The notes below the pieces were generated by a model. It was given only the letters and a program-made list of their open reading frames with translations. It had not been told where the DNA came from and searched no databases. From assembly GCA_021770445.1 (NCBI GenBank), contig JAETQY010000002.1, positions 1 to 64,000 on the forward strand: 64,000 nt of DNA. The letters are read 5' to 3'. Source of the DNA: Bacillota bacterium. Lineage in GTDB: Bacteria > Bacillota > Clostridia > Oscillospirales > Oscillospiraceae. The position numbers and the translations under genes are program-made. Shown here piece after piece: positions 5,933 through 21,393 of this stretch (the stretch's first letter is position 1; each line of letters begins with the position of its first letter).

Positions 5933-7567
5933 ATGGCTGATATCAAAAAGAACACCGTCCACACCCTGGACATCACCGGCTATACCGCCGAGGGGATGGG
6001 AGTGGCCCGGCTGGAGGGGCGGGTGGTCTTTGTGCCCTGCACCATCCGGGGGGAGCGGTGGAAGGTCCGCCTGGAGAAGGTGAACAAAAATGTGGCCTGG
6101 GGCAGGGGAGTGGAGCTGATCGCCCCCTCCCCGGAGCGGGTAGAACCCGACTGCCCCCTCTTTGACAGATGCGGCGGCTGTCAGTTCCGGCACATGACCT
6201 ACGCGGAGGAGCTGCGGGCCAAGAGACAGCGCATCGCTGATGCTCTGGAGCGGGTGGGGCACATAGTAGATCTGGACCTGCCCCCTGTGCTGGGGGCGGA
6301 GGACCCCCTTCGCTACCGGAATAAGGTGCAGTTTCCTGTGTCTCAGGGGAAGCGGGGGCTGTCGGTGGGCTACTACCGGGGCAGGAGCCACGACGTTTTA
6401 GATGCCCCGGACTGCCCTCTCCAGCCCGAGATAGTCACCCGGCTGCGGGCAGCTTTCAAGAGCTGGATGGAGGAGTATGCCCTCCCCGCCTACGACGAGG
6501 GGACAGGCAAGGGGCTGATCCGCCACCTCTATGTCCGCACCAATAGCCGGGGGGAGAGTCTGGTGTGTGTGGTGGCCAACGGGGACAAGCTCCCCCACAG
6601 CGGTGAGCTGGCGGAGGCCCTGCGCCGGGCGGAATCCGGACTGGCGGGGCTGGTGCTCAGCACCAACACCCGGGACACCAATGTGATTTTGGGGGAGCAA
6701 TACACTACCCTCTGGGGCCAGGACTGGCTGGAGGAGGAATTGTGTAACCTTGATTTCCGCCTTTCAGTGCCCTCCTTCTTCCAGATCAACCGGGCTCAGA
6801 CAGAAGTGCTGTATGGCATCGCCCAGGATTTTGCCGGGCTCACCGGGGCGGAGACCGTCCTGGACCTGTACTGTGGCATCGGTACCATCTCTCTGTCCCT
6901 GGCCCGGCGGGCCCGGCGGGTCATTGGGGCGGAGATTGTCCCCCAGGCTATTGAAGATGCGAAGGAGAATGCCTGCCGAAATGGCATCGGGAATGCGGAA
7001 TTCTTCTGCGGCGACGCCGGGGCGGTGGCCCAGAAGCTGGGAGATGAGGGTGTCCGGCCCCAGGTGATCTGCGTGGACCCGCCTCGGAAGGGCCTTGCCC
7101 CCCAGGTGCCCGCGATTCTAGCCGGCATGGCCCCAGAGCGGATTGTATATATCTCCTGCGACCCGGCCACTCTGGCCCGGGATGTGGACCGCTTCGCCCA
7201 ACTGGGCTACCGGGCGGTGAGAGCCCAGGGTGTGGACCTCTTTCCCAGAACGGCCCATGTGGAGACGGTAGTACTTTTGTCCAAACTCAACACCAAGCAG
7301 CATATCGAGGTGGAGTTGAATCTGGACGAGCTGGATTTGACAGCGGCGGAGAGCAAGGCTACCTATGAGGAAATCAGAGAGTATGTGCTGGAACATACAG
7401 GGCTGAAAGTCAGCCACCTCTATATCGCTCAGGTCAAGCAGAAGTATGGCATTATTGAGCGAGAAAACTATAATAAACCGAAGTCTGAGAATTCCAGACA
7501 GCCGAAATGCCCACCGGAAAAGGAAGCGGCAATTACAGAGGCGCTAAAGCATTTTGGAATGATTTGA
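5933..7567 (+). CDS. rlmD: 23S rRNA (uracil-C5)-methyltransferase RlmD/RumA family with an exchanged C-terminal tail
   Basis: Uses S-adenosylmethionine to methylate C5 of a uracil in 23S rRNA. A TRAM domain occupies residues ~5-60. Iron-sulfur cysteines C74, C80 and C83 follow, with a fourth in the APDCPL segment. The methyltransferase has FFQINRAQ, DLYCGIGT (motif I), DPPRKG and catalytic C409 in YISCDPATLARD. After HVETVVLL (442-449) the family normally ends within a few residues, but here ~90 more residues follow. These are in clearly lower-GC codons (KATYEEIREYVLEHTG ... KHFGMI). The extra tail and the genes behind it look acquired. The core is complete and should be active. Confidence 0.9.
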   Translation: MADIKKNTVHTLDITGYTAEGMGVARLEGRVVFVPCTIRGERWKVRLEKVNKNVAWGRGVELIAPSPERVEPDCPLFDRCGGCQFRHMTYAEELRAKRQRIADALERVGHIVDLDLPPVLGAEDPLRYRNKVQFPVSQGKRGLSVGYYRGRSHDVLDAPDCPLQPEIVTRLRAAFKSWMEEYALPAYDEGTGKGLIRHLYVRTNSRGESLVCVVANGDKLPHSGELAEALRRAESGLAGLVLSTNTRDTNVILGEQYTTLWGQDWLEEELCNLDFRLSVPSFFQINRAQTEVLYGIAQDFAGLTGAETVLDLYCGIGTISLSLARRARRVIGAEIVPQAIEDAKENACRNGIGNAEFFCGDAGAVAQKLGDEGVRPQVICVDPPRKGLAPQVPAILAGMAPERIVYISCDPATLARDVDRFAQLGYRAVRAQGVDLFPRTAHVETVVLLSKLNTKQHIEVELNLDELDLTAAESKATYEEIREYVLEHTGLKVSHLYIAQVKQKYGIIERENYNKPKSENSRQPKCPPEKEAAITEALKHFGMI

Positions 7568-7568
7568 G

Positions 7569-7823
7569 GTGACGAATTTGGAGCACTTGATTTCTTGTGA
7601 GTTCAATATCGACACTGCTTGTGTAGAGCTTAAATTTGCTGATAGCAGCATTATTTCTATTGACTGCACCGCAGTCGAAAACGAGATTTCAAGCAATATG
7701 TATCAGCGTTCTGAATTAGATTACTTGATTTTCAATGATCCGGTTGCCTATGCTGACTTAATTCTCAATGGGACCCCGGAAGTTTACTTGAAAACCGTCA
7801 CAGAGGATAAGCCTCTGGACTAA
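7569..7823 (+). CDS. Small DUF6061-like protein
   Basis: An 84-residue acidic protein. It shows a beta-rich N-terminal part (CEFNIDTACVELKFADSSII), the phrase MYQRSELDYLIFNDPVAYA and a short C-terminal tail. I recognise the pattern as that of DUF6061, small proteins of unknown function common on Clostridia mobile elements; this is from memory and unverified. The TTG/ATG choice is uncertain: the frame begins at 7569 with a non-ATG codon, one base after the rlmD stop, suggesting coupling to rlmD. A strong terminator follows at 7826. Confidence 0.6.
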   Translation: MTNLEHLISCEFNIDTACVELKFADSSIISIDCTAVENEISSNMYQRSELDYLIFNDPVAYADLILNGTPEVYLKTVTEDKPLD

Positions 7824-7825
7824 CT

Positions 7826-7881
7826 AAAATCCGCCAGTACCGATAATCTTAAAGTTTCGGTGCTGGTGGATTTTGTTTTTT
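7826..7881 (+). terminator. Strong terminator after the rlmD/DUF6061 unit
   Basis: An ~18-bp stem with G-U pairs only as imperfections: AAAATCCGCCAG... pairs with ...CTGGTGGATTTT, followed by GTTTTTT. It isolates the R-M genes from rlmD transcription. Confidence 0.85.
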
Positions 7882-7982
7882 ACCTCTATTTATGGCTGTT
7901 CCTTTTTACACACCTGTAAATAATTACAGCTGTACATATTTGCCTGTTGCGCTATAATTATATTACAGAGGAGGGCTATAGT

Positions 7983-8240
7983 ATGAGCGAACCTTTTGAC
8001 TATGGACATTTTGATATCGTTTTGGCTGAGTATTTACAGGAGAAAAAAGTCAGCAAAAATCGTTTGGCTGAGGAAGCAAACCTACAACGGACACAACTGA
8101 ACGCTTATTGTAAGAATGACATCAAGAGACCAGACCTCGATGTTTTAGCTCGTATTTGTTATGCTCTTAACTGTGATTTGGCGGACATAATCCGTTATGT
8201 ACGCCCTTCCCATGAGAACGGAGGAAGCAGTAATGGCTGA
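7983..8240 (+). CDS. XRE/Cro-type HTH controller of the R-M genes
   Basis: An 85-residue DNA-binding protein. The helix-turn-helix is at residues ~17-55 (SKNRLAEEANLQRTQLNAYC, then a DVLARICYALNCDL helix). The ATG at 7983 follows AGAGGAGG at good spacing; the earlier ATG at 7947 has no site. Its stop codon overlaps the methylase start by 8 bp. This suggests a controller protein that times or limits R-M expression, as C proteins do; the role is inferred from position. Confidence 0.85.
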   Translation: MSEPFDYGHFDIVLAEYLQEKKVSKNRLAEEANLQRTQLNAYCKNDIKRPDLDVLARICYALNCDLADIIRYVRPSHENGGSSNG

Positions 8241-10254
8241 CACAAAGGTAATTGTCATTCCAGATGGTAAAATCTGCGACTATATTGACAGCAAGTTCAG
8301 AAACGATACTCCCGAAGAGTATGTTCGTCAGACAATAGAAAAACGTCTTGTGAACGAACACAAATATCTCACATCGCAGATCAAAATCGAGTTCACTCTT
8401 CAAGTTGGCTCAAGAAAACCTCGGGCAGACATTGTAATCTGGGACAAAGATGCCCCAGAGCAAACACAGGGCACAATTAAGATTATTATTGAGTGCAAAA
8501 AGGAAACCGTCGATGCCAGAAACGCCAAGGATGGAATAGCACAATTGCAGTCCTATATGTCTGTATGCCCGAACTGCGAATGGGGTATGTGGACAAATAG
8601 CATTCAAAAGTTTGTCTTCCGTAAATATACAGATGGTGCTGGGAATATTTGCTTTATGGAATACAACGATATTCCTTCTGCGGATGGCAATTTAGATGAG
8701 GTAAACAGACCTAGCCGGAAAAATCTGCGCAATGCTTCGGATGATAATCTGCTGTTTGTGTTTAAAACCTGCCATAATCACATTTATGTGAATGATGGTA
8801 TGCAGAAACAACCTGCATTTTTTGAGTTGCTAAAAGTCATTTTTTGCAAGATCGAGGACGAGCGAAATATACCAAAGCCTCTGGAATTTTTTACAACGTC
8901 TGAGGAGCGTTCAAATCCGGATGGGCAACTGACTGTACAGAAACGCATTTCCCAAATCTTTCAGCGCGTAAAGAAGCGTCATGGTAAGATTTTTGACGCA
9001 AATGATGAGATCAAGCTGACGCCTCGCAGCTTAGCGTATATTGTCAGCGAATTGCAGCGGTACAGCCTGCTCAGCACGAATATCGACATCAAGGGAAAAG
9101 CCTATGAAGAAATTGTAGGAGCCAATCTCCGCGGCGACAGGGGCGAGTTTTTTACGCCCAGAAATGTTATGAAGATGGTTGTGGAGATGATAAATCCTCG
9201 TATTGACGAGCGTGTCCTGGACAGCTCCTGTGGTACTGGCGGTTTTCTTGTACAGGCAATGACACATGTTATTGCCCAGCTTGAAGCAGAGTTTTCTGCC
9301 AGCATGGGAATTCCTAAAAAAGATTGGGATGGCGACACCGTAAAAGTATTTCAAGATCGGATTTCCGAGATGGCTTCGACCAGTTTCTTTGGTTTTGATA
9401 TTAATCCTGATTTAGTCAAGGCAACCAAGATGAACATGGTCATGAACAATGATGGTAGCGGAAATATTCTGCAAACAAATTCCCTCCTGCCTCCGCACGA
9501 ATGGACAGATGAGTTCAAGACACGGCTTGCGGAGGCACTACATATCAAGAAGTCAGAAATTCGCAACCATGAAAGTATTGCGTTCTTTGATGTAATTGTA
9601 ACAAATCCCCCATTTGGCAGTAAAATTCCTATCAAGGACAAAAACATCCTTGAACAGTTTGAACTTGCCCACATTTGGGAAAACGACAAGACAACCGGCA
9701 CTTGGAGGATGACTGAGCGTTTGCAATCATCTGTCCCGCCTGAAATTCTATTCATTGAGAGATGTTCACAGTTTCTCGTTCCAGGTGGGCGCATGGGAAT
9801 AGTTTTGCCGGATTCCATCCTTGGATCACCGGGATTGGGGTACATTCGTGAATGGCTGATTCAGAATCATAGGATTATTGCCAGCGTTGATCTCCATGTA
9901 GATACTTTTCAGCCCCATAACGGCACACAAACATCGGTTCTATTTCTTCAAAAGAAAACAGCAGCACAAAAGGGCAAAGAAGCGGCTACAGGACAAATGG
10001 CCGACTATAATATCTTTATGGCAATGGTTGAAAGGGTAGGACATGATAAGAGAGGCAATCCCATTTTCAAGCGTGATGTAGAAGGTAATGAAATCCTTGC
10101 CCCGGATACGGATAACATCATGGTTCTCGGTGAAACCGGGGAGGGTGATCGCACTGTCTCTCACGAGCGCAAGAGCAAGGTGCCTGACGATCAGACCACT
10201 GCCGTACCAGCAATCTTTGACGACTGGAAGCGAAGGGAGGGCATTGCATGGTAG
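8233..10254 (+). CDS. Nuclease-methylase fusion subunit of a BcgI-like / type I-like R-M system
   Basis: A 673-residue protein. The N-terminal ~170 residues look like the HsdR N-terminal nuclease fold, with candidate catalytic residues D66 and E87-x-K89 (PRADIVIWD then IIIECKKE). An HsdM-like N6-adenine methyltransferase follows: helical bundle at ~220-300, motif I DSSCGTGG from residue 330, and NPPF (458-461) as the catalytic motif. It therefore could both cut and methylate, with the S subunit choosing the site. No helicase motor is present here or nearby. The start at 8233 follows GGAGGAAG. Loss of the nuclease and a solitary methylase role cannot be excluded, but the D...ExK pattern looks intact. 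Confidence 0.85.
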   Translation: MADTKVIVIPDGKICDYIDSKFRNDTPEEYVRQTIEKRLVNEHKYLTSQIKIEFTLQVGSRKPRADIVIWDKDAPEQTQGTIKIIIECKKETVDARNAKDGIAQLQSYMSVCPNCEWGMWTNSIQKFVFRKYTDGAGNICFMEYNDIPSADGNLDEVNRPSRKNLRNASDDNLLFVFKTCHNHIYVNDGMQKQPAFFELLKVIFCKIEDERNIPKPLEFFTTSEERSNPDGQLTVQKRISQIFQRVKKRHGKIFDANDEIKLTPRSLAYIVSELQRYSLLSTNIDIKGKAYEEIVGANLRGDRGEFFTPRNVMKMVVEMINPRIDERVLDSSCGTGGFLVQAMTHVIAQLEAEFSASMGIPKKDWDGDTVKVFQDRISEMASTSFFGFDINPDLVKATKMNMVMNNDGSGNILQTNSLLPPHEWTDEFKTRLAEALHIKKSEIRNHESIAFFDVIVTNPPFGSKIPIKDKNILEQFELAHIWENDKTTGTWRMTERLQSSVPPEILFIERCSQFLVPGGRMGIVLPDSILGSPGLGYIREWLIQNHRIIASVDLHVDTFQPHNGTQTSVLFLQKKTAAQKGKEAATGQMADYNIFMAMVERVGHDKRGNPIFKRDVEGNEILAPDTDNIMVLGETGEGDRTVSHERKSKVPDDQTTAVPAIFDDWKRREGIAW

Positions 10255-11732
10255 CAGGTAACTTGGCCCACAAAATGAATACCGCGCCTGAAATAGAAGT
10301 TCATATTCTGGAAAGCCCTATAAAGTGGTGTTCGGTCTCCCTCTCCGATATGATTTCCCGTGGGAAGCGGCTGGAGGCTAGCGTATTTGATGTGGAGGCA
10401 AAACAAGCGCGGGAGAGTGTTTATAAAGGGAAATATGGAACTGTTATTCTCTATGGTGATAGCGGCTTGATTGAAACTGCCTATTATCCTGGCTGGATGC
10501 AGCGGAGCCGGCTCAAGAGGATATGGTGTGATAAGCCATATGGAGAGGGGTTCTATCTTCCTTCACAGATGACCGATCTCTATCCTGTTCCAGAAAAACA
10601 TATATCTCGGTTGGCAGATTGTGATATGGATGAACTCCGCTTAAAGGAAAACACTTTATTGCTGACGCGCAGCGGTACAATAGGCAACATCTCATATGTA
10701 TCAAGAACCTTGGCCGGTCGTGTTTTTTCTGATGACGTAATTCGTGTTACCTTCAAAAAAGAATATGACTTGGGATATGTTTATACCTATCTCAAATCAA
10801 AGGTGGGCAGTTTAATTTTACAAACCAATGGCTATGGTTCAGTAATTACCCATGTTGAGCCGGACCACTTATCAGAAATCCCGGTTCCCGATGCTCCTGT
10901 GGAGTTGCGGCAGCGTATACATAATTTGATTGCACGCTCCTATGCTTTGCGGGACGAGTCCAATGAAATGATTGATAAGGCTACAGGCCTGTTGATAGCG
11001 GAACTTCACCTGCCAGCTATACATGAGTTTCAAAAGGTGGCCGCCCCTGTGAGCACATTCGATGTAAAACTAAGCAATATGAACCTGCGGCTTGATGCTT
11101 CCTACCATGTTCCGGCGGCAGATGCAATTGTTGCCCACCTCAAAGAGAACGCTGCCGAATTAACAACCGTAGGCGACAGCCAGATAAGCAGATCAGTTAT
11201 TCTACCAGGCAGATTTAAGCGTGTTTATGTAGATGAAGGGCATGGCCGAGGTTTTATCGGTGGAAAGCAACTTGGGGAATTGGATCCTTCCAATAAAAAG
11301 TATTTATCGTTGGCCCATCATGGTGAGCGGATAGATGAGCAGTTGGAATTGCACGAAAACATGACATTAATTACAAGAAGTGGAACTATCGGAAAAACAG
11401 CTTTAGTACCTAAACACTGGGAACATTGGGTAGCAAGTGAGCACATCATTCGTGTAACCCCCGCCAATTCCCAAATAGCCGGATATCTGAATATTTTTCT
11501 TGCTTCCGATTATGGGCATCAACTAATTACTCGTTTCACATATGGCTCTGTGGTTGATGAGATTGATGATGATCATGTTCGGCAAATTCCTATCCCACTG
11601 TTGCGTAATCAAGAGATGCAGCAACAAATCAACTCCCTAGCACTTGAATCGAACGTCAGGAGATATGAGGCCTACAAGCTGGAGCAAGAAGCCCTTCGCA
11701 TTATGAACGAGGAGGTTATTTTTGCAAAATAG
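10248..11732 (+). CDS. Specificity (S) subunit with two target-recognition domains
   Basis: A 494-residue HsdS-like protein that should recognise a split DNA target. It has two halves of similar design. Half 1 has LLLTRSGTIGNIS, then GSVITHVEPDHLSEIPVPD; half 2 has LITRSGTIGKTA, then GSVVDEIDDDHVRQIPIP. Each is followed by a helical conserved region (~220-250 and ~460-490). The start overlaps the methylase stop by 7 bp, so the subunits are translated together. Low-GC codons differ from the flanks. The N-terminal half is the more divergent one, as expected for a variable recognition domain. Confidence 0.88.
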   Translation: MVAGNLAHKMNTAPEIEVHILESPIKWCSVSLSDMISRGKRLEASVFDVEAKQARESVYKGKYGTVILYGDSGLIETAYYPGWMQRSRLKRIWCDKPYGEGFYLPSQMTDLYPVPEKHISRLADCDMDELRLKENTLLLTRSGTIGNISYVSRTLAGRVFSDDVIRVTFKKEYDLGYVYTYLKSKVGSLILQTNGYGSVITHVEPDHLSEIPVPDAPVELRQRIHNLIARSYALRDESNEMIDKATGLLIAELHLPAIHEFQKVAAPVSTFDVKLSNMNLRLDASYHVPAADAIVAHLKENAAELTTVGDSQISRSVILPGRFKRVYVDEGHGRGFIGGKQLGELDPSNKKYLSLAHHGERIDEQLELHENMTLITRSGTIGKTALVPKHWEHWVASEHIIRVTPANSQIAGYLNIFLASDYGHQLITRFTYGSVVDEIDDDHVRQIPIPLLRNQEMQQQINSLALESNVRRYEAYKLEQEALRIMNEEVIFAK

Positions 11733-11810
11733 ATGTCAGCTTGTAAGACCCATTCGACTGACATATGACAGCTCCATGGACTTATGAAGGCAAAATCGAT
11801 GAGCAGTTTT

Positions 11811-12356
11811 CTATTCAGTATCACTGGTATATTGCCGCTCCAGCCTTTCTGGAGTAGCTGGGTTGAGAATAGTAATCTTCCTCCCCAGCTTCCTGGCATA
11901 CCTCACTGTCATAGCCGTCCCGCCCCGCCACTCGCCGTTGTAGACGGCCAGCAGATAGGCAGAATGCTCAACCAGATAGCGATTGCGTTTCAACATACAT
12001 TCTTTATTGTACTTCCGGTTTACATACACAATTGAATCCGCCTGCTTCAAAATAGAATAATAAAGTTCCCGCGCCGAAGCCGACCACTGATCCGCCTGTC
12101 CCTCGCAGGGAAGGACACAGTGGAGCTTTAGCGCGGGATTTTCTTTTTTCAAGGCAAAAACGGCCAGCGCTGCCCAAGTGTCGGACCCCTCCGCCATGCC
12201 AGAAAGAAAGTCGGTATACCCAGCGCCCACCAGTGTGGCAATTTGTTTTGAGAGCATTCTTTTTAGAGTAACACATCTAGCATCTGTTTCATCATAGCCC
12301 CAGGGAAATTTCTTCGGGCGGTGGCCTGTGAACGCACAGCACCTTTCAATCATCAT
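11811..12356 (-). CDS. SLOG-family (DUF1273-like) nucleotide-binding protein
   Basis: A 181-residue single-domain protein. It opens with CCAFTGHRPKKFPWGYDE and has FLSGMAEGSDTWAALAV in the first half, the signature of SLOG Rossmann-like proteins related to DprA/LOG and YspA. These are proposed to bind nucleotide-derived ligands and often occur in mobile elements and defence loci. The start ATG at 12356 has GGAGG at 6-nt spacing. It is divergent from a small HTH gene across a long palindrome. Precise function unknown. Confidence 0.8.
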   Translation of the reverse strand: MMIERCCAFTGHRPKKFPWGYDETDARCVTLKRMLSKQIATLVGAGYTDFLSGMAEGSDTWAALAVFALKKENPALKLHCVLPCEGQADQWSASARELYYSILKQADSIVYVNRKYNKECMLKRNRYLVEHSAYLLAVYNGEWRGGTAMTVRYARKLGRKITILNPATPERLERQYTSDTE

Positions 12357-12380
12357 GATCTGCCTCCGATTTTTAATTTT

Positions 12381-12429
12381 AGTATGGGGGTTATATCCCC
12401 TTAATAAGGGAGATTATAACCCCCATACT
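12381..12429. promoter_or_regulatory. Long palindrome between divergent SLOG and HTH genes
   Basis: Fifteen-base arms AGTATGGGGGTTATA (12381-12395) and TATAACCCCCATACT (12415-12429) are perfectly complementary. The 19-bp centre TCCCCTTAATAAGGGAGAT is itself nearly palindromic. Located between two divergent starts, it is most simply a double operator for the adjacent HTH protein. No AT-rich tract makes it look like a terminator. Confidence 0.65.
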
Positions 12430-12455
12430 AGTTGGTGTCAATCGGGGGTGAGTGT

Positions 12456-12662
12456 GTGATCGTCTTTGATAAATTGTGGGGTGTCATGAAGGAAAAGGGA
12501 GTCTCCACATATCTGCTGCGAGAGAAGTGCGGTATCGACAGTAAAACCATCCGTCGGCTACGGGCAAACGACAATATGGAGACAAAGACGCTAAATAAAC
12601 TGTGCGCGGTACTTGATTGTCGCCTGGAGGATATTGCTGAATATCTTCCAGACGAGCAGTAA
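12456..12662 (+). CDS. Small XRE-type HTH regulator
   Basis: A 68-residue protein consisting almost entirely of one helix-turn-helix domain (YLLREKCGIDSKTIRRLR followed by KTLNKLCAVLDCRLEDIAEY). The GTG at 12456 is chosen because GGGGGTGA lies just upstream and homologous proteins start at this point; an upstream TTG at 12432 would run into the palindrome. It probably controls the divergent promoters at 12381-12429. A 17-bp hairpin begins at its stop codon. Confidence 0.75.
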   Translation: MIVFDKLWGVMKEKGVSTYLLREKCGIDSKTIRRLRANDNMETKTLNKLCAVLDCRLEDIAEYLPDEQ

Positions 12663-12702
12663 CAGCTCTACGGTTCTATGTGTGCAGAACCGTAGAGCTG
12701 TT
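12661..12702 (+). terminator. Perfect 17-bp hairpin after the HTH gene
   Basis: AACAGCTCTACGGTTCT and its full complement around an 8-nt loop, followed by AGTATTTT. Likely a terminator that separates the regulator from the oriT region. Confidence 0.65.
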
Positions 12703-13056
12703 AGTATTTTCGGAGCGAGGTGTTCAGACTGCGTTTTAGCAGTATTTGCACTCCAGGCTCCGAAAATGTAGGGGGAATCCAAGGGGGGATACTTCCTCTC
12801 TTGGCACACGACTTTCCCTCGGAAAGTCTAGTGTGTTATACCTTTGCTTCCGGCTGACGCCGGGAAGGGGCTGACTGCGGCATCTGCGACTTGGGCAGAT
12901 GGGCAGCGGGCAGACACTTTTCGGTGGCAGTAGGACAGGCGGATTTTGTACGGACACGGACGAAATCAGGATTTGCTCACAGGGCAAAATCCGCCTGCCC
13001 GGAAAAGGAAGCAGAGGTATATCAACTCCCGTCCCGCCGCAGCGACAGCACCCTCG
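12703..13056. other. Non-coding transfer region with inverted repeats
   Basis: No gene is credible here. It contains oriT (next entry) flanked by two inverted repeats. ATTTTCGGAGC (12706-12716) pairs with GCTCCGAAAAT (12757-12767). CAGGCGGATTTTG (12936-12948) pairs with CAAAATCCGCCTG (12985-12997). A GC-rich hairpin CCGGCTGACGCCGG follows the nick region. These may be relaxosome protein sites or terminator-like insulators. Confidence 0.5.
12805..12845 (+). other. oriT: Origin of transfer (oriT), pMV158/MobV type
   Basis: CACAC-G-ACTTTCC, loop ctc, GGAAAGT-cta-GTGTG forms the hairpin, followed by TTATACCTTTGC. The stretch TAGTGTGTTATAC (12829-12841) matches the conserved nick region of pMV158-family origins, where MobV relaxases cut TAGTGTG/TTA. 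The predicted nick is between 12835 and 12836. The element encodes a MobV relaxase at 17606, 4.8 kb away; the relaxase gene itself has no such sequence in front of it. Confidence 0.8.
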
Positions 13057-13968
13057 TTAGTTCGTTTCCCCCTTGGATTTCTCGCGGCTTTTGTAGACAT
13101 TATATTGATTCTTACACCGGGCACTGCAAAATGCAGCGTTGGAGCGACTGCCCAGGAACACCTTCTGGCAGTGCTTACACAATCGCAGGGGCTGCTCATC
13201 GTCCACCAGCATGAAGCTGAACATCATCTGAATACCCAGTAGCAGCGAATGAAAGTCCCAATAAATGGTTGGCTTATCCAGCAGTTCGATGTGGTAGCTG
13301 GGGGCGATCCCGCCAAAGGCAGCCATGGCCTTGCTGTACAACCCCCGTGTGTCCTCGTCGATGGAATCATAATCTTTGTAGTACAGGATTGAGGTAGACA
13401 GGGTGAATGCCCAGTCCTTGAACTGCTGGGCAACCCAGTCGTAGGGTTCCGCATATTCCCGCTGGAAGCTCATATTCTTCGCCATCGGCTCGTCCATGAA
13501 GGTCATGGTCAGGGCAACCATCGTCCGGTCACCGGACACGTTCCATGTGGATGTAATGCCTTTCTTCACCAGGTCCAGCTGGTCAAAGGGGTAAAACAGG
13601 GACAGATATTTGTCTGCCGCCATGGATTCTTCCTTGATAAAATGGTTTTTCGGCAGGTACACCGCCTCATAGTCCATAAAGGACGGCGTGGTGGGCAGAG
13701 CGGTCATCAGCCCCAGCAGGCCGTACCGGGTGATAAACTCCATGATCGCCTTTTCCACTTCTGCTTCCGGCTTGCGCCCCATCATCAGCATCCCCACATT
13801 CAGGGCATCCAGCACAATGTTGGGGACCTCTTTCAGCGGATTGTAGACATCCGGCTTTGCATTTTTGCCGGGGGTGATGTACCGCCTGCCGTCCCCGGCT
13901 GTTTTCAGTTCGTAATGGTCGTACCGCACCCAATGGGAACGGGACTGTTCAAATAAATTTTTCATCAT
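13057..13968 (-). CDS. DUF6076-like protein with C-terminal zinc-binding cysteines
   Basis: A 303-residue protein of unknown function found on Clostridia mobile elements (I recognise it as DUF6076-like, from memory). The first ~250 residues have no catalytic motif. The C-terminus has CKHCQKVF then FCSARCKNQYN, a four-cysteine zinc knuckle resembling those of CGNR-type DNA-binding proteins. The start at 13968 (tandem ATG ATG) follows AAGGAGAAAGGG. It lies 31 bp downstream of the sigma-like gene on the same strand and is probably co-transcribed. Confidence 0.65.
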   Translation of the reverse strand: MMKNLFEQSRSHWVRYDHYELKTAGDGRRYITPGKNAKPDVYNPLKEVPNIVLDALNVGMLMMGRKPEAEVEKAIMEFITRYGLLGLMTALPTTPSFMDYEAVYLPKNHFIKEESMAADKYLSLFYPFDQLDLVKKGITSTWNVSGDRTMVALTMTFMDEPMAKNMSFQREYAEPYDWVAQQFKDWAFTLSTSILYYKDYDSIDEDTRGLYSKAMAAFGGIAPSYHIELLDKPTIYWDFHSLLLGIQMMFSFMLVDDEQPLRLCKHCQKVFLGSRSNAAFCSARCKNQYNVYKSREKSKGETN

Positions 13969-13999
13969 ACACGCCCTTTCTCCTTAATCGTCCCAATTA

Positions 14000-14851
14000 T
14001 CAGGGGCGGTTTTTCTTTTTTCTGCGCTTGGTCTTGTTCTCCCGCCGGATCACGGCGTCTTTGCCCTGTTTCCTTGCGATTTTCGAGTATTCCTCCAAAA
14101 ACTGACGTTCCCGCAAGGTCAAGCTGCCGCCATGCTCCTGTTTTCTGCACAGATGGTCATACATCTGGCGCTGCAATTTTTTGTGGATGGTCTTTCGCAG
14201 CTTGCGGATGTTGCGGTCAGACTGCCCACGCACAGCGGCAAGCTGGGTGGTGCTGTACAACCGCAAAGAGAGGAAATACAAAACCTCCTTGTGTTCCTCG
14301 CTCAGTTCTTCCACCATGCGGGAAATAAAGGCGTCGGCAGTGAGGTTGTGCATCTCATAGGGGCAGTCAAACAGGATGTCCAGAAAGTTCCCGGCCATCA
14401 TCTGCCGGTATGCGGGGTTGTTCATCCATCGGGGAATGAACTTCGGTTCCGGCACCGCCTGATATTCCAGCGGCACATCCCCACGAAGGTTTTCATGGTC
14501 CCGTTCCCGGCGCTCCCGATTCTGATCCAGCTTGTCCCATTCCCCTACGACGACCCGGAAGTCCTTTTCGGTGCGGGCCGCTTCCTCCAGCCGACGCACG
14601 GCTTCGGCCCGGATCTCCCGTTTCAGCCGCTTTTCGCTGACTGGGGCGGCTTCTTCTTCCTCGGTTTCTAGTTCCGCTTCATAATCGACGGGATGCTCGT
14701 CCTGCTCCAACTCGCTTTCCAGCTCTGCCAGACGTTCTTCCGCAAGTGCCTGCTCCAGCGTTTCCCCCGCCGCACCAGCGCCTGTCCCATCGTCCCATCC
14801 GGTGAAGCCACCCTCGGTATCCAGAAGCTCATCATCAGACAGATACGCCAT
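14000..14851 (-). CDS. Sigma-70 region-4-like protein of the element
   Basis: A 283-residue protein. Residues 1-~65 are very acidic, the middle is charged and helical, and residues ~180-240 resemble sigma region 4: LSEEHKEVLYFLSLRL, then TQLAAVRGQSDRNIRKLRKT as the putative HTH. The C-terminal 40 residues are strongly basic. The ATG at 14851 has GAGAGG upstream; the longer frame to 14890 is less likely. It may direct RNA polymerase to element promoters or act as a DNA-binding regulator. There is no clear region 2, so full sigma function is doubtful. Confidence 0.65.
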   Translation of the reverse strand: MAYLSDDELLDTEGGFTGWDDGTGAGAAGETLEQALAEERLAELESELEQDEHPVDYEAELETEEEEAAPVSEKRLKREIRAEAVRRLEEAARTEKDFRVVVGEWDKLDQNRERRERDHENLRGDVPLEYQAVPEPKFIPRWMNNPAYRQMMAGNFLDILFDCPYEMHNLTADAFISRMVEELSEEHKEVLYFLSLRLYSTTQLAAVRGQSDRNIRKLRKTIHKKLQRQMYDHLCRKQEHGGSLTLRERQFLEEYSKIARKQGKDAVIRRENKTKRRKKKNRP

Positions 14852-14935
14852 GACCTCACCTCTCTCAAAAAATATTTTGTGATTTTTCAAAAATGGTTCC
14901 GTTTTGCACCCCGGATTTCTCCTATTAGCGAAAGG

Positions 14936-14961
14936 GTAATCTAAAATCAGATTACTTTTTT
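14936..14961 (+). promoter_or_regulatory. Hairpin/dyad between divergent element operons
   Basis: GTAATCT, loop aaaatc, AGATTAC then TTTTTT. It reads as a small intrinsic terminator on the plus strand, or as an operator between the divergent sigma-like and primase operons. A second dyad GGTTCCG (14895-14901) / CGGAACC (14962-14968) encloses it. Confidence 0.4.
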
Positions 14962-15068
14962 CGGAACCACATCAACATTATACAACGACTGCGCCGGAAG
15001 CGCAAGAAAGAGAGGTTCTATGGTAAAAAACGGCACCCAGGATTTTTTTCGGAAGGGAGTGAGCGACA

Positions 15069-15689
15069 GTGACACTGTTTGAACTGGTAAAACAAGCTGT
15101 TTGTGTTCCGGAGGCGGCGACCTATTATGGGCTGCAAGTCAGTCGAAACCGCATGGTCTGTTGTCCGTTCCATAATGACCGACACCCCAGCATGAAACTG
15201 AACGAGCGTTATTTTTACTGCTTCGGCTGCGGAGTAACCGGTGATGTGATTGACCTTGTGGCGAGGTTATTTGACCTGAGTAGTTACGAGGCAGCGCAGA
15301 AGCTGGCTTATGACTTCGGGATTGACCCGGACAAACCACCGGCAGCAATCGCTCTGCCCAAACCGGAACGTCCTCTGCTGAAAGCATACCGGCAGGAGGA
15401 AGTGCGCTGCCTGCGGGTATTGTGCGATTATCTGCATCTTCTGGAAAGCTGGAAGGTGCAGCACACACCCAAGACACCGGAAGATGTTCTGGATGACCGG
15501 TTTGTGGAAGCCTGCCAGATGCTGGACTATGTGGAGTATCTGGCAGATTTGCTCATTGCCGCCGAGCTGGAACAACGGGTAAAAATCGTAGAAATGCTGA
15601 ACAAGGATGGTCTGATCACAGGTTTGGAGGAACGGCTGGAGAGTTTGGAAAAGGAGGAACAGAGAGATGAAAAAGAACAAGCAGCCTGA
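15069..15689 (+). CDS. CHC2 zinc-finger primase-like protein
   Basis: A 206-residue protein with a DnaG-type CHC2 zinc-binding domain at residues ~24-75: CCPFHNDRHPSMKL then YFYCFGCGVTGDVIDLVA. The primase catalytic (TOPRIM) domain is missing, so it is a stand-alone zinc domain with a helical C-terminal half. It probably works with the helicase encoded by the next gene to start element replication. The GTG start at 15069 follows AAGGGAG. The next gene starts 23 bp before its stop codon. Confidence 0.85.
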   Translation: MTLFELVKQAVCVPEAATYYGLQVSRNRMVCCPFHNDRHPSMKLNERYFYCFGCGVTGDVIDLVARLFDLSSYEAAQKLAYDFGIDPDKPPAAIALPKPERPLLKAYRQEEVRCLRVLCDYLHLLESWKVQHTPKTPEDVLDDRFVEACQMLDYVEYLADLLIAAELEQRVKIVEMLNKDGLITGLEERLESLEKEEQRDEKEQAA

Positions 15690-17025
15690 CGGGATGCCCG
15701 TCTGGTTTGATGGAAAAAGCATCAACGAAGCCCTGTTTTGTGATGAGTTCTTGCAGACACACAAGATCATCTTCACAAGTGGGGCTTTTTTCACGCCCGA
15801 AGGCCGTGTGACCGATGAACTGCCCCTGCGGGGAGAGATTTTTGAGGAGCTGAAATGCTGTGCGGTCAGCAATATTCCCCGCAAAATCAGCAACATTGTG
15901 GAGCTGATGAAGCTGGCGGCGCTGGTGGAGGAATTTCCTCCGGAGCCGGACCGGATTCACCTTTCCAACGGTACACTTTTTCTGGACGGAACCTTTGTGG
16001 AGGGAAAGCCGAAAATCGTCCGCAACCGTTTCCCCGTGTCCTACAATCCCAACACCCCGAAACCTGTTCTCTGGCTGCAATTTCTGGATGATCTGCCCTA
16101 CCCGGAGGATATTCCCACCTTGCAGGAATATATCGGCTACTGCCTGATTCCCAGCAACAAGGGGCAGCGGATGATGGTCATTAAGGGCAGCGGCGGCGAA
16201 GGAAAGTCGCAGATCGGCGCTGTGCTGGGAACTTTGTTCGGTTCCAACATGAAGGACGGCAGCATCGGGAAAATATCCGAAAACCGGTTTGCCCGTGCGG
16301 ATTTGGAACACATTCTCCTGTGTGTGGATGACGATATGCGGATGGAGGCCCTGTGCCAGACCAACTATGTGAAATCCATCGTCACTGCCCAGGGTAAGAT
16401 GGATTTGGAGCGCAAGGGCAAGCAGAGCTATCAGGGATGGATGTGCGCCCGGCTGCTGGCTTTCTCCAACGGAGATTTGCAGGCGTTGTTTGACCGGAGC
16501 GATGGATTTTACCGCCGCCAGCTGGTGCTGACTACGAAAGAAAAACCGGCTGGCCGTGTGGATGATCCTGACCTTGCCGAGAAGATGAAAGCCGAGGTGG
16601 AGGGTATTCTGCTGTGGGCTTTTGAGGGATTGCAGCGGCTGGCCGCAAACAACTTCAAGTTCACCGAGAGCCAGCGCACCAAAGACAACCGGGAAGCAGT
16701 CAAACGGGACAACAACAATGTCTATGATTTTCTGGATTCTGACGGGTATGTTCGCCTGAAAGCCGATCTGTCCGCCAGCTCCAAAGAGCTATATGAGGCA
16801 TATCAGATTTACTGCGCCGAAAACAACCTGCCTGCCCTGAAGCCCCGCAGCTTCAGCGAAGCCCTGATTGCCTGCCAGAGCCGCTACAATCTGGAATACT
16901 GCAACAATGTGACCAATGCTGCCGGACGGCGAGTGCGTGGCTTTCTGGGAATTGAGGTGCTGGTGAGAAACAATATGTCGGTGTTTTCTGGTGATTTGAT
17001 GTGTACGTACGTACGCAGTGATTGA
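15667..17025 (+). CDS. P4-type primase C-terminal / SF3 helicase
   Basis: A 452-residue replication protein of the D5/P4 group. It has a D5-N-like region at ~90-170, Walker A GSGGEGKS near residue 175, Walker B ILLCVDDD near 217, and a helicase SF3 segment through ~300. The C-terminal 100 residues look like the winged-helix domain of phage/plasmid primases. It would unwind DNA at the element's origin. It overlaps the CHC2 gene by 23 bp; the pair reconstitutes the two halves of a primase-helicase. The 3' end of the gene contains GTACGTACGTAC. Confidence 0.85.
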   Translation: MKKNKQPDGMPVWFDGKSINEALFCDEFLQTHKIIFTSGAFFTPEGRVTDELPLRGEIFEELKCCAVSNIPRKISNIVELMKLAALVEEFPPEPDRIHLSNGTLFLDGTFVEGKPKIVRNRFPVSYNPNTPKPVLWLQFLDDLPYPEDIPTLQEYIGYCLIPSNKGQRMMVIKGSGGEGKSQIGAVLGTLFGSNMKDGSIGKISENRFARADLEHILLCVDDDMRMEALCQTNYVKSIVTAQGKMDLERKGKQSYQGWMCARLLAFSNGDLQALFDRSDGFYRRQLVLTTKEKPAGRVDDPDLAEKMKAEVEGILLWAFEGLQRLAANNFKFTESQRTKDNREAVKRDNNNVYDFLDSDGYVRLKADLSASSKELYEAYQIYCAENNLPALKPRSFSEALIACQSRYNLEYCNNVTNAAGRRVRGFLGIEVLVRNNMSVFSGDLMCTYVRSD

Positions 17026-17387
17026 TCGCTGTTCTCCCTTTTATAGCAATTCGGCGGCTATACCAGTCAGAATCATCGGTCAAATCCCCATGCTAAATCA
17101 AGGCAAGTGGGAATCGGAAAGTATTTGACGGTTGGAAGAAATCATTTTGCGAAACAGTGTTTCTCGCCCCGGTGAACCGGGTGCATGGAACCATGGGAAA
17201 ATGCACGGTTTCAAGCCAAGTCACACGAAACGGAAAAGTTGGAAGGTGCGACCTATGAGCAGGACATCACACCGGCAATTCTGAACGGATTTGTTGACGA
17301 GAGAATTTTTCACGACACAGCGAAGCGGTTATGCCAGAGGGCGTACCGGCTTCGCTTTTTTATCAAGTAAATTTAGGAGGATTTTTT
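17026..17387 (+). other. Leader region of the relaxase operon
   Basis: No convincing gene. It contains CCCGGTGAACCGGG (17168-17181) and a nested dyad CATGGAACCATG near 17184, bounded by TGCAT/ATGCA. These could form a structured leader or protein-binding sites. The region ends in a terminator (17320-17361), so the relaxase operon may be attenuated. Confidence 0.4.
17320..17361 (+). terminator. Terminator upstream of the mob operon
   Basis: GCGAAGC (17320-17326) and GCTTCGC (17349-17355), with further partial pairing inside, followed directly by TTTTTT. Confidence 0.75.
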
Positions 17388-17609
17388 ATGATGACGGTAC
17401 GCAACGAGATTAAGGCACAGATCGTCCGGGCGGGATATACCATGCAGGAGATAGTTGACCGGCTCCATGAGGAATACGGCTGGTCGGACAGTGTTTCCAA
17501 CCTGTCGGCCAAGCTCCAGCGGGAATCCATCCGCTACAAGGAGGTTGTAGAGCTGGCCGACGTGCTGGGCTATGACATTATCTGGCAGAAACGGAGGGAC
17601 AGAGCATGA
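17388..17609 (+). CDS. Small HTH-like accessory protein upstream of mobV
   Basis: A 73-residue protein with the pattern MTVRNEIKAQIVRAGYTMQE, then SVSNLSAKLQRESIRYKEVV, compatible with a short helix-turn-helix (similar in style to DUF6471 and XRE repressors). AGGAGG lies 7 nt before the ATG at 17388. Its stop overlaps the relaxase start (ATGA). It probably regulates the mob operon or joins the relaxosome; this is inference. Confidence 0.7.
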   Translation: MMTVRNEIKAQIVRAGYTMQEIVDRLHEEYGWSDSVSNLSAKLQRESIRYKEVVELADVLGYDIIWQKRRDRA

Positions 17610-18586
17610 GCAAGCCGCAGTATGCCATTCTCCGCTTTGCCAAGTACAAGGGGCCGGAGATCGGGAACATTGAAGCCCACAACGAGCGAACCAAAGAGAA
17701 ATACGCCAGCAACCCCGATGTGGACATCAGCAGGAGCAAGTACAATTTCCATCTGATCGAGCCGCAGCGAAAATATCGTGCAGAGGCGGAGCGGCAGATC
17801 AAAGAAGCCGGTTGCCGTACCAGGTCAGACAGTGTTCGGGTAGTGGAAGCCCTGATAACTGCCACACCGGAGTTCTTTCAGGGAAAGAAAAAATCTGAGA
17901 TCAGAGCCTATTTTCAAGAGGCGCTGACCTTTCTCCAGCAAAACCAAGACCCCAAAACAATCATATCCGCCGTGGTGCATATGGACGAGAAAACGCCCCA
18001 TATGCACCTTTCTTTTGTCCCGATGACTGCGGATGGCAGGCTCAGCGCCAAGGAGATTGTGGGAAATAAGAAAAAGCTGACCCAGTGGCAGGACAAGTTC
18101 TGGGAACACATGGTGCGGAAATATCCCGACCTGGAGCGTGGTGAAAGCGCCAGCCAGACCGGACGTGACCACATCCCGCCCAGAGTGTTCAAAGAGATGA
18201 CCCGCCTGACCAAGCAAAAAGCCAAGCTGGAAGAACTGCTGACCGGTATTGGAGCCTTTAACGCAAAAAGCAGAGCTGCCGAGATTACGGCTCTGCTGGA
18301 TAAGTATATCCCCGCGGTGGAGCAGATGCACAGCACCATGAAGAAGTATCAGGTGGCATTTACGGAAACCACCGTGGAGAACAGAAAGCTGAAACAGGAG
18401 AATGCACAGCTGGAGCAATCCCTAGAGCAAGCAACCCAAGAAAGCACTTTGAAGCAGCTGGCCGATGCAAAGCTGCGGCGGGACTATGCTGACGCTGTTG
18501 CTGTGCTGGATCGCATTCCAAAAGAAGTGCTGGCGGAGTACATGCACAAACCGGACAGACGGAGGATAAATGCCTATGATAGATGA
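17606..18586 (+). CDS. MobV-family relaxase (Pre/Mob plasmid recombination enzyme)
   Basis: A 326-residue relaxase that nicks oriT for mobilization. The defining metal/catalytic motif is HMDEKTPHMH, giving H125, D127, E128, H132 and H134. The N-terminal block AILRFAKYKGPEIGNIEAHN holds the conserved region around the expected N-terminal motif. Residues ~190-300 are coiled coil. The length is at the short end for MobV. It should act on the pMV158-type oriT at 12805-12845. It is preceded by a coupled HTH-like gene and followed by a small overlapping ORF. Confidence 0.92.
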   Translation: MSKPQYAILRFAKYKGPEIGNIEAHNERTKEKYASNPDVDISRSKYNFHLIEPQRKYRAEAERQIKEAGCRTRSDSVRVVEALITATPEFFQGKKKSEIRAYFQEALTFLQQNQDPKTIISAVVHMDEKTPHMHLSFVPMTADGRLSAKEIVGNKKKLTQWQDKFWEHMVRKYPDLERGESASQTGRDHIPPRVFKEMTRLTKQKAKLEELLTGIGAFNAKSRAAEITALLDKYIPAVEQMHSTMKKYQVAFTETTVENRKLKQENAQLEQSLEQATQESTLKQLADAKLRRDYADAVAVLDRIPKEVLAEYMHKPDRRRINAYDR

Positions 18587-18752
18587 GTGGAACGGCTTCG
18601 CCGTTTTACTGGCAAATATGATTGAAAAATATGCTGGGGAGCTGGATTTAGATTCTTTGCCTGATCCGGTGTTCCACGAGGATAAAATCACAAACCACGG
18701 CACAGATAAAAATGTTTGCAAAGAAAATGTTGAAACGCTAAAAGCAGCATGA
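18570..18752 (+). CDS. Small hypothetical protein after mobV
   Basis: A 60-residue acidic protein (starts MPMIDEWNGFAVLLANMIEK) overlapping the 3' end of mobV by 17 bp. It has GGAGG just before its ATG, which suggests real translation coupled to mobV. No family recognised. Confidence 0.5.
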   Translation: MPMIDEWNGFAVLLANMIEKYAGELDLDSLPDPVFHEDKITNHGTDKNVCKENVETLKAA

Positions 18753-18784
18753 TACAATAATCGTGAGATAAGTGTCCAAACATA

Positions 18785-18815
18785 TTTCCAAGGGAAGCAT
18801 TTCTTCCCTTGGAAA
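18785..18815 (+). terminator. Perfect hairpin between the mob operon and the recombinase
   Basis: TTTCCAAGGGAAG and its exact complement around a 5-nt loop; AT-rich ends on both sides allow it to act in either direction. Confidence 0.6.
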
Positions 18816-18856
18816 ATACATAAGGAAATGTTGAGCAGTATTAGCGAGGAAGGACC

Positions 18857-20536
18857 ATGGTGAAAGAAAAGATAAAAGTTTATACCTATACGCGAGTGTC
18901 TACCGCCATGCAGATTGACGGCTACTCGCTGGATGCCCAGAAATCCCGCATGAAAGCCTTTGCAGAATTTAATGATTATGAGATTGCTCATGAATATGAG
19001 GATGCAGGAAAATCTGGTAAATCGATTGAAGGCCGTACGCAATTTAACCAGATGATGGAGGACATCAAAACCGGCAAGGATGGCGTTTCCTTTGTTCTGG
19101 TATTCAAGCTGTCCCGTTTTGGCAGAAATGCGGCGGATGTCCTTTCCACCTTACAGGTCATGCAGGATTTTGGCGTCAATCTGATTTGCGTGGAGGATGG
19201 CATTGATTCCTCTAAAGATGCAGGAAAGCTGATGATTTCCGTCCTATCGGCAGTGGCGGAAATTGAGCGTGAAAACATCCGTGTCCAAACCATGGAAGGT
19301 CGTATCCAAAAGGCCAGAGAAGGCAAGTGGAACGGTGGCTTTGCCCCCTACGGCTATAAACTGGTGGATGGCAAGCTGGAAATCAACGAGGAGGAAGCTC
19401 CGGCGATTCGCACCATCTATGAGCAGTATGTTACAACCGATTCCGGCGCAAATGGGATCGCAAAATATCTTGAAAATCAAGGGATCAGTAAAGTCCAGCG
19501 CCAGAACGGGAAAAATCCTCTTTTTGATGCTCGTCTGATCCGCATGATTCTGAAAAATCCGGTTTACTGCGGCAAGATTGCCTATGGCAGGCGAAAAACC
19601 GAAAAGGTGCATGGAACCAGAAACGAGTACCGTTTGGTAGAACAGGAAAACTTTTTGTTGGTGGATGGTCTGCATGAGGCCATTATCCTCGAGGATGTAT
19701 GGCAGGCAGCGCAGGTCAAGTTGGCTGCTCAAGCCAAACGGTATGAACACGTCAACAAAGGGAAAAACGAATGCACACACCTGTTGTCCGGCATTGTAAA
19801 ATGTCCCATATGCGGTGTTGGAATGTACGGTAATAAGTGCGTAAAACGGAAAGCAGACGGCAGCAAATACAAGGATTTCTACTACTATGGCTGCAAACAT
19901 CGCTCTATGACCCGTGGACATAAATGCGATTACAAGAAGCAAATTCGGAAAGAGCTGCTGGACGATGCTGTGGCGGAGGTGATCTGCAAGCTGGTCAGCA
20001 ATCCCAAATTTGCGGTGATGATGCAGGAAAAGATCAACATGAAAGTCGATACCACGGCGATTGAGCAGGAAATCAGCAACTATGAAAAGCAGCTTCGTCA
20101 GGCTTATTCCACCAAATCCAAGCTAATTGAAGAAATCGACTCTCTTGACCCAGATGACCGGCATTACAGCAGGCGGAAATCAGACCTTGATGATCGGCTC
20201 TATGGGATGTATGATAAGATTGAAGAATTAGAATCCCTGCTGATTACAGCCAGAGCCAAGAAACAGACCATTGAGGCAGAAAAGCTGACCGGCGATAATA
20301 TCTACAAGGTCCTGATCTACTTCGATCAACTCTATGGAAAGATGAACGACAGAGAGAAACGGCAGCTGATTGAGGAACTGATCTCTGAAATACAGATTTA
20401 CCCGGAGCGTCAGCCCAATGGCCAGTGGCTGAAATCCATCAAGTTCCGGTTGCCTATCATCGAGGAAGATATGAATATCAGTTTGGACAATGAACAGCAA
20501 GTTGAAACGGCGTGTCTTCTGATTCGGGAAGAGTAA
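18857..20536 (+). CDS. Large serine recombinase
   Basis: A 559-residue site-specific recombinase that would integrate and excise the island. The N-terminal resolvase domain has YTRVST with catalytic S15, then FKLSRFGRNAADV and AEIERENI. The recombinase domain (~160-270) and a zinc ribbon (CPICGVGM ... GCKHR ... HKC, residues ~315-355) follow, with a coiled-coil C-terminal region (~400-500). GAGGAAGG precedes the ATG. It is the last gene of the island, ending 86 bp before sigK. Large serine recombinases of this class move Tn5397/Tn4451-type elements and the sigK-interrupting skin elements. Confidence 0.93.
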   Translation: MVKEKIKVYTYTRVSTAMQIDGYSLDAQKSRMKAFAEFNDYEIAHEYEDAGKSGKSIEGRTQFNQMMEDIKTGKDGVSFVLVFKLSRFGRNAADVLSTLQVMQDFGVNLICVEDGIDSSKDAGKLMISVLSAVAEIERENIRVQTMEGRIQKAREGKWNGGFAPYGYKLVDGKLEINEEEAPAIRTIYEQYVTTDSGANGIAKYLENQGISKVQRQNGKNPLFDARLIRMILKNPVYCGKIAYGRRKTEKVHGTRNEYRLVEQENFLLVDGLHEAIILEDVWQAAQVKLAAQAKRYEHVNKGKNECTHLLSGIVKCPICGVGMYGNKCVKRKADGSKYKDFYYYGCKHRSMTRGHKCDYKKQIRKELLDDAVAEVICKLVSNPKFAVMMQEKINMKVDTTAIEQEISNYEKQLRQAYSTKSKLIEEIDSLDPDDRHYSRRKSDLDDRLYGMYDKIEELESLLITARAKKQTIEAEKLTGDNIYKVLIYFDQLYGKMNDREKRQLIEELISEIQIYPERQPNGQWLKSIKFRLPIIEEDMNISLDNEQQVETACLLIREE

Positions 20537-20622
20537 CAGGAAAATATCCAGCCTCGTGAGACGGGGAGGTGGGGCATAGGGACGTGCCGGGCGTGAATAG
20601 GGTAAGGCGGAGGTGTTATAAA

Positions 20623-21318: not shown

Positions 21319-21353
21319 TTTGATTTTGTGGTATTTCAACAAATAGCAGCTTT

Positions 21354-21381
21354 TTGCCCCAAGATATTGGGGCAATTTTTT
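21354..21381 (+). terminator. sigK terminator
   Basis: TTGCCCC, 8-nt loop, GGGGCAA followed by TTTTTT. Confidence 0.8.
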
Positions 21382-21393
21382 CTGCGGTTGCTG

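What the first reader, a model, noticed from the sequence alone, without database searches (positions are those of the whole stretch)
7983..11732. Compact BcgI-like restriction system with coupled controller and no motor subunit
A single chain joins an HsdR-type nuclease domain (D66, E87-x-K89) to an N6-adenine methylase (NPPF), paired with a two-TRD S subunit and preceded by a small HTH protein whose stop overlaps the methylase start. No HsdR motor gene exists nearby. This resembles type IIB systems such as BcgI, which cut on both sides of a bipartite site, but the methylase part and HTH arrangement look HsdM-like and may form a distinct branch.
Basis: partly seen in the sequence, partly recalled or inferred. 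Interest (0 to 1): 0.75.

Follow-up and report, generated by a model that had tools for sequence, protein, structure and literature searches.

The report
Self-contained restriction enzyme related to MADS
A mobile DNA element in a gut-type bacterium carries a compact two-protein enzyme that probably both marks its host's DNA and cuts unmarked DNA, and its nearest named relative is the DNA-marking protein of a large bacterial anti-virus system (MADS) in which the cutting site has been lost.

Summary
A small HTH gene (7983-8240) overlaps by 8 bp a 673-aa protein joining an HSDR_N_2 nuclease domain (E53, D66, E87-C-K89) to an N6-adenine methylase, followed by a two-TRD S subunit. The best reading is a self-contained restriction-modification enzyme that works like BcgI/BsaXI (Type IIB).

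Stand-alone pairs, found in many phyla, keep the four nuclease residues (90 of 91 rows, the other truncated). MADS-type MAD2 rows never do (0 of 11). Loci fetched afterwards agree: 19 of 19 against 0 of 5, of which 14 and 4 are new and distinct. A tree suggests one loss, with moderate support.

The HTH gene has a matching double palindrome over its promoter, like a controller protein. The cassette appears to ride a mobilizable element of about 13.3 kb inserted in rlmD. Near-identical copies occur in two MAGs of other genera; in one, TRD2 alone has been replaced, so specificity is being swapped.

It is a new variant of a known kind, with a testable link to the origin of MADS.

The parts
7262..20564 (.). 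probable integrated mobilizable element (about 13.3 kb) at the 3' end of rlmD; 7-bp repeat GAGACGG at 7262-7268 and 20558-20564
   Evidence: left end: identity with L006 and L007 starts exactly at 7262. Right end: only the 7-bp repeat and gene content; the right flank was not found beside rlmD in relatives, so an empty site was not shown
7826..7880 (+). terminator-like inverted repeat (arms 7826-7843 / 7857-7874) followed by a T-rich stretch, between DUF6061 and the cassette
7909..7934 (.). candidate operator: two boxes of TACAgCTGTA type, 7909-7918 and 7925-7934, 16 bp start to start, overlapping the place of the -35 element
   Evidence: conserved columns in 10 promoters; pair in 11 of 15 HTH rows; none of 65 other loci as strong
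7953..7958 (+). TATAAT, likely -10 element of the HTH-RM-S operon
   Evidence: read directly
7983..8240 (+). 85-aa Cro/C1-type HTH protein (HTH_26), likely controller
   Evidence: PF13443 E 1.4e-17
8233..10254 (+). 673-aa RM subunit: nuclease domain about 27-148 (E53, D66, E87, K89), then N6-adenine methylase (DSSCGTGGF motif I, NPPF at 458)
   Evidence: NCBIfam MAD2 647 bits, below cut-off 720
10248..11732 (+). 494-aa specificity subunit S, two TRDs
   Evidence: Methylase_S; NCBIfam MAD5 377 bits, below cut-off 400
11225..11537 (+). TRD2-coding block that is replaced (about 65% DNA identity at its centre) in the otherwise near-identical cassette of L007
   Evidence: 105 of 107 differences between 11000 and 11732 lie here
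17606..18586 (+). Mob_Pre relaxase
   Evidence: PF01076 E 4.5e-51
18857..20536 (+). large serine recombinase
   Evidence: PF00239 E 3.6e-37, PF07508, PF13408

Best explanation
A two-subunit restriction-modification enzyme with its own regulator, carried by a mobilizable element. Inferred working: two RM chains sit on one S chain, each RM over one TRD; S reads a bipartite site; each RM methylates an adenine in its half-site. At sites with no methyl group the N-terminal PD-(D/E)xK domains cut DNA at a fixed short distance, without ATP-driven movement, as in BcgI/BsaXI. The HTH protein binds the double palindrome over its own promoter and sets the dose of the enzyme, for instance after entry into a new host. 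Shown: gene layout, conserved catalytic residues, no MADS effector genes beside nearly all stand-alone pairs examined, operator conservation, recent transfer of the cassette, exchange of TRD2. Inferred: complex, cutting, methylation, regulation. The family is the sister branch of the MADS-type MAD2 rows, in which the nuclease residues are gone, so there destruction must rest on other subunits.
For: Domains and motif. Best solved relative is RM.BsaXI, E 6.4e-33, best stretch residues 177-578; in BsaXI E73, D90, E105 and K107 are needed for cutting (PMC11997821, section read), the same order as E53-D66-E87-K89. All four residues in 90 of 91 stand-alone rows (81 clusters at 95% identity; the other row is truncated there), D and E-x-K in 9 of 9 distant rows, and 19 of 19 later rows with the region, 14 of them new and distinct. 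S match in 78 of 80 loci. Flanks of 86 sequences: no MAD3, MAD4, MAD7 or MAD8, one kinase hit, no match to this genome's two HsdR proteins. RM and S fused in 3 loci, as in AloI-type enzymes (PMC3874165, passages). TRD identity follows RM identity poorly (Spearman 0.15, 0.31), the conserved regions well (0.70). TRD2 replacement. Operator.
Against: No cutting, methylation or binding was measured, and no structure could be predicted. The profile of the N-terminal domain found no solved nuclease by sequence, and matched the N-termini of the genome's two HsdR proteins only weakly (P 0.075 and 0.029, hhalign probability under 2%), though with D and ExK in register. The N-terminal part of BsaXI aligned at only 2.2 bits. 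PADLOC's best profile calls the family a Type II methyltransferase, not a nuclease. The controller gene is present in a minority of the family. Only 49 of the 80 loci hold 3000 or more bases beyond the S gene, so effectors further off could be missed.
Confidence: 0.74

Rival explanations
1. Modification-only pair: RM + S methylates a bipartite site as an epigenetic mark and the nuclease-like domain is a structural relic.
For: PADLOC labels the best family MTase_II; the MADS-type relatives show that the domain can persist without catalytic residues.
Against: Strict retention of E53, D66, E87, K89 across phyla in stand-alone pairs, contrasted with loss in MADS-type rows. TRDs vary and are swapped, which does not suit a fixed mark.
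Confidence: 0.13
2. A reduced or partner-dependent MADS: a MAD2 + MAD5 core that borrows effectors from elsewhere in the genome.
For: Nearest NCBIfam models are MAD2 and MAD5. Four stand-alone loci carry a MAD1-like HTH upstream and one (L053) a kinase-like gene.
Against: Scores lie below both cut-offs. No MAD6 over the cut-off in the genome; six weaker matches, best 112 bits against 460. No MAD7/MAD8 in the flanks of 86 sequences. Intact nuclease site. MADS rows are one side of a branch (90/79).
Confidence: 0.07
3. A Type I system whose HsdR is supplied by the separate hsdR on contig C73.
For: An intact hsdR exists in the genome, and 12 of 16 other carrier genomes have some SWI2_SNF2 match.
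Against: That hsdR is in its own M-S-R cassette. 4 of the 16 carriers gave no match to either HsdR family, among them G1220 with the near-identical element.
Confidence: 0.04

Closest known systems
MAD2-MAD5 of MADS (NCBIfam NF047738, NF047740)
   Same: same domain order, 647 and 377 bits, M and S genes together, an HTH upstream
   Different: below both cut-offs; nuclease residues intact instead of lost; no MAD3/4/6/7/8 beside it; HTH of another family
RM.BsaXI + S.BsaXI (Type IIB)
   Same: N-terminal E-D-ExK order, N6A methylase, separate two-TRD S subunit; best solved relative
   Different: 673 aa against 916 aa; the main alignment stops at BsaXI residue 625, before the region that the paper calls knob and paddle
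BcgI (Type IIB / multimeric IIG)
   Same: RM + S layout without motor, as described in PMC3874165 (passages)
   Different: the BcgIA sequence was not at hand and no comparison was made; cutting on both sides not shown here
AloI/CjeI-type single-chain RMS enzymes
   Same: 3 loci of this family (L076, L077, L082) have RM and S fused
   Different: the window version is two chains
Controller (C) proteins of R-M systems
   Same: small HTH gene overlapping the next gene's start, paired operator at its promoter
   Different: boxes TACAgCTGTA lack the GACT/AGTC core of the classical C-box; HsdC of Mollicutes is a described case of controllers with other boxes, also on Type I operons (PMC5282649, passages). 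Here M and R are one chain

Membership tests
Type IIB (BcgI-like) | nuclease and methylase in one chain plus separate S subunit | tested here: met
   nuclease by domain match and residues only
Type IIB (BcgI-like) | PD-(D/E)xK catalytic residues in the N-terminal domain | tested here: met
Type IIB (BcgI-like) | nuclease fold by structure | not testable with these tools
   prediction job failed, then tool switched off
Type IIB (BcgI-like) | two TRDs for a bipartite site | tested here: met
   Methylase_S in two stretches; TRDs vary apart from RM; the site itself is unknown
Type IIB (BcgI-like) | no translocating motor | tested here: met
   none beside it; some carriers show no HsdR match; independence not tested biochemically
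Type IIB (BcgI-like) | double-strand cuts on both sides of the site | not testable with these tools
   needs purified protein
Type IIB (BcgI-like) | 2 RM : 1 S complex that methylates both strands | not testable with these tools
   needs purified protein or a methylome
MADS | MAD2 and MAD5 over the curated cut-offs | tested here: not met
   647 against 720 and 377 against 400 bits
MADS | MAD6, MAD7, MAD8 beside the methylase | tested here: not met
   none in the window by tblastn; no MAD6 over the cut-off in the genome
MADS | MAD1 excisionase-type HTH upstream | tested here: not met
   window HTH is HTH_26, NF047737 not among its hits
Type I R-M | HsdR motor-nuclease partner | tested here: not met
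   none in the locus; a partner elsewhere is unlikely but not excluded
C-protein control | small HTH gene overlapping the next start, with paired operator at its own promoter | tested here: met
   binding not tested
C-protein control | classical C-box with GACT/AGTC core | tested here: not met
   boxes are TACAgCTGTA against the core quoted

The most novel reading that the evidence does not exclude
MADS arose from a self-contained BcgI-like restriction enzyme of this family: the RM subunit kept its methylase and S partner, lost its nuclease site once, and handed destruction of unmarked DNA to recruited subunits (the kinase MAD6, MAD7, MAD8). The window holds the still-cutting sister form, mobile and with a dedicated operator-controller pair.
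Probability: 0.55. Interest if true: 0.75.

Novelty: new variant of a known kind. Interest (0 to 1): 0.58.

Why it matters
How MADS destroys unmarked DNA is listed as unknown in a 2026 review (PMC12904381, passages). If its methylase is a nuclease-dead sister of a complete restriction enzyme, the search can move to the other subunits, and residue changes in both families become a direct test. The family spans many phyla, naturally swaps target domains and may be a source of bipartite-site enzymes.

Tried and rejected
Plain MADS or orphan methylase: rejected as first choice because of the strictly kept nuclease residues and the missing effectors. Partnership with the genome's own Type I hsdR: judged unlikely (own cassette; no match in some carriers). 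Fixed epigenetic mark: unlikely because TRDs are swapped. A universal HTH partner: rejected. Of 76 loci with enough upstream sequence, 12 have the same HTH ending near the RM start (E 2e-21 or better) and 2 more a weaker one; four others carry a MAD1-like HTH, and of ten upstream ORFs scanned five gave no Pfam match (L017, L020, L023, L034, L035). A recurrent third gene: one cluster of 260-266 aa follows S in 7 of 80 loci; Pfam found nothing in the member tested. I saw no member of it in the window's ORF list, but did not search for one. An empty insertion site: not shown; DNA right of the element (20400-24500) had no match in the ten regions fetched from genus relatives. Profile of the N-terminal domain against solved structures: nothing relevant. 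Against the own HsdR N-termini: weak. Literature: searches for MADS genes did not list the primary MADS paper, and it is not held. I saw it only as cited in two other papers (passages), so I cannot say whether its authors noted the lost nuclease site.
Full report
What is there. The cassette is HTH 7983-8240, RM 8233-10254 and S 10248-11732, each gene overlapping the next. RM joins an HSDR_N_2 domain to an N6-adenine methylase; S has two Methylase_S stretches. E53, D66, E87, C88 and K89 are invariant in 44 aligned sequences, the window included. The HsdR-like protein of contig C22 matches the same HSDR_N_2 family (E 5.2e-06), which supports reading it as a nuclease domain.

Nearest families. 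NCBIfam places RM nearest to MAD2 (647 bits, cut-off 720) and S nearest to MAD5 (377, cut-off 400) of MADS. PADLOC ranks a 'MTase_II' profile first. Among solved structures the best relative is RM.BsaXI, E 6.4e-33, best stretch 177-578; its N-terminal part aligned at only 2.2 bits. In BsaXI four residues in the order E-D-E-K are needed for cutting (PMC11997821, section read).

A stand-alone pair. A scan of one genome per species found 292 relatives among 294 pattern matches; the best 80 were kept, so the sample leans to close relatives. An S match lies in 78 of 80 (L058 and L059 show none). Neighbours differ; the only cluster that follows S in more than two loci is a 260-266 aa protein in 7 of 80, of no known Pfam family in the member tested. 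In L076, L077 and L082 RM and S are one chain. Tblastn of MADS proteins against these 80, five further loci and the window gave no MAD3, MAD4, MAD7 or MAD8, one kinase-like hit (L053) and four MAD1-like HTH genes (L033, L036, L040, L075); the same queries found MAD6 and MAD7 in 7 of 7 MADS loci and MAD8 in 6 of 7. The genome's two HsdR proteins had no match in the same 86 sequences. Some loci are short: 49 of 80 hold 3000 bases or more beyond S.

How common. In a sample of the window's phylum, matches of 590 bits or more are in 2 of 398 genomes, one being the window's own. In the samples around G003 and G004, which were chosen because they carry it, they are in 4 of 395 (one, G343, is MADS-like by its neighbours) and, below the cut-off and not MADS, in 2 of 377. 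Matches over the MAD2 cut-off: 0 of 398, 0 of 395 and 5 of 377. In the genus sample only G1188 besides the window has the close form, among 25 genus members.

Nuclease site against context. At positions 53/66/87/89 stand-alone rows read EDEK in 90 of 91, the other being truncated there; the 91 rows form 81 clusters at 95% identity. Nine more distant rows read EDEK (8) or QDEK (1). Eleven MAD2 rows read DDVE, DDIF, DEVN and the like, never E-x-K. Ten of these lie beside MADS or MADS-like genes; L128 is counted by its score over the cut-off alone, its contig being too short. I then fetched two sets from a viral collection. Sixteen stand-alone rows with the region and 3 rows with a short S-like gene all read EDEK; the five MADS-type rows read DAQA, DDLR (3) and NDVK. 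This set is not wholly independent: L193, L195, L197 and L205 repeat earlier rows at 96-100%, and L206/L207 and L211/L216 are near copies, which leaves 14 new rows of the first kind and 4 of the second. For L211 and L216 the contig ends at the gene, so their context is a MAD1-like gene and identity to MAD2 only. In a tree of 58 of 112 rows the 9 MADS rows are one side of a branch (support 90/79, not starred), with E-x-K rows on both other sides; long branches make deep joins unsure. One loss is the simplest reading; two are not excluded.

Controller. Promoters of HTH-bearing loci share a double palindrome although the surrounding DNA differs. A pair of TACAgCTGTA boxes 16 bp apart with 17 or more of 20 letters is in 11 of 15 HTH rows. 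L011 reaches 17 only at another spacing and L030 scores 15; both have the right box intact. L018 and L019, whose HTH is only weakly similar, have none. None of 65 loci without this HTH reaches 17 (in one, L068, the stretch scanned was not an upstream region). The pattern was derived from these same promoters and several rows are near copies, so the contrast with the other loci matters more than the count. The right box ends 18 bp before TATAAT and so overlaps the place of a -35 element. The HTH is not essential to the family.

Mobility and specificity. Nine genus relatives match the window's rlmD DNA up to about 7267-7281 and not beyond. L006 and L007, MAGs named as other genera, have rlmD proteins 39% and 48% identical to the window's, yet match the window without a break leftwards to position 7262, at a GAGACGG core that recurs at 20558-20564. 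A seven-base repeat alone can be chance; L006 and L007 end before the right end, and no empty site was found. Between the repeats lie genes for a DUF5906 protein, Mob_Pre and a serine recombinase. Elements with a single serine integrase in rumA (rlmD), exchanging its 3' part, are known; there one end lies inside the integrase gene, here about 22 bp past it (PMC4701971, passages). L006 and L007 each differ from the window at 6 positions between 7262 and 11000. From 11000 to 11732 L006 differs at 1 position and L007 at 107, of which 105 lie in 11225-11537, the TRD2 part. Across 69 rows (68 loci and the window) TRD1 and TRD2 identity follow RM identity poorly (0.15, 0.31), the conserved regions well (0.70); at 65% identity TRD1 falls into 25 clusters and TRD2 into 11. 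The pairs are not independent.

Motor. The genome's intact hsdR belongs to an M-S-R cassette on another contig, and a second HsdR-like frame ends before a Mu-type transposase gene. Of the 16 carrier genomes that I tested, 12 match SWI2_SNF2 (11 over the cut-off) and 5 match EcoEI_R_C; 4 match neither.

Conclusion. A BcgI/BsaXI-like restriction-modification enzyme (0.74) of a distinct branch, sister to the MADS-type MAD2 rows. It works like Type IIB; full membership awaits proof of bilateral cutting.

Noticed in passing
L142:1522-5642 (G836) and L212: Two MADS loci carry tandem MAD2 genes; in both the second copy has NPWF in place of NPPF as well as a lost nuclease site, suggesting a catalytically dead second methylase subunit.
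   Followed up: partly
L013, L030, L035, L038, L042, L043, L044 (for example L030:10500-11300): A 260-266 aa protein follows the S gene in 7 of 80 loci; no Pfam match for the one tested. Possible accessory gene.
   Followed up: partly
L005:7882-9534: An HsdR-like frame (HSDR_N_2, ResIII) ends early; a Mu-type transposase gene lies about 1.3 kb downstream.
   Followed up: partly
L146, L210: MADS-like loci with another gene order (MAD6-MAD7-M-S-MAD8) and an M subunit far from other MAD2 proteins.
   Followed up: partly
L213, L214, L215: Virus-collection contigs with a short S-like gene (278-312 aa) before an RM gene whose nuclease residues are intact.
   Followed up: no
L133: MAD2-like gene of a MADS-like locus is split into two frames.
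   Followed up: no
L017, L055, L081, L149: S genes appear in two pieces; assembly errors and real breaks were not told apart.
   Followed up: no
L033, L036, L040, L075: Stand-alone RM-S pairs preceded by a MAD1-like HTH, an arrangement like a MAD1-MAD2-MAD5 core of MADS.
   Followed up: partly
L097: The pair is carried by a Mycobacterium prophage between its terminase/HNH genes and its primase genes.
   Followed up: no
window 11811-12662: A YpsA-type SLOG protein and a second HTH_26 protein lie next to the cassette.
   Followed up: no
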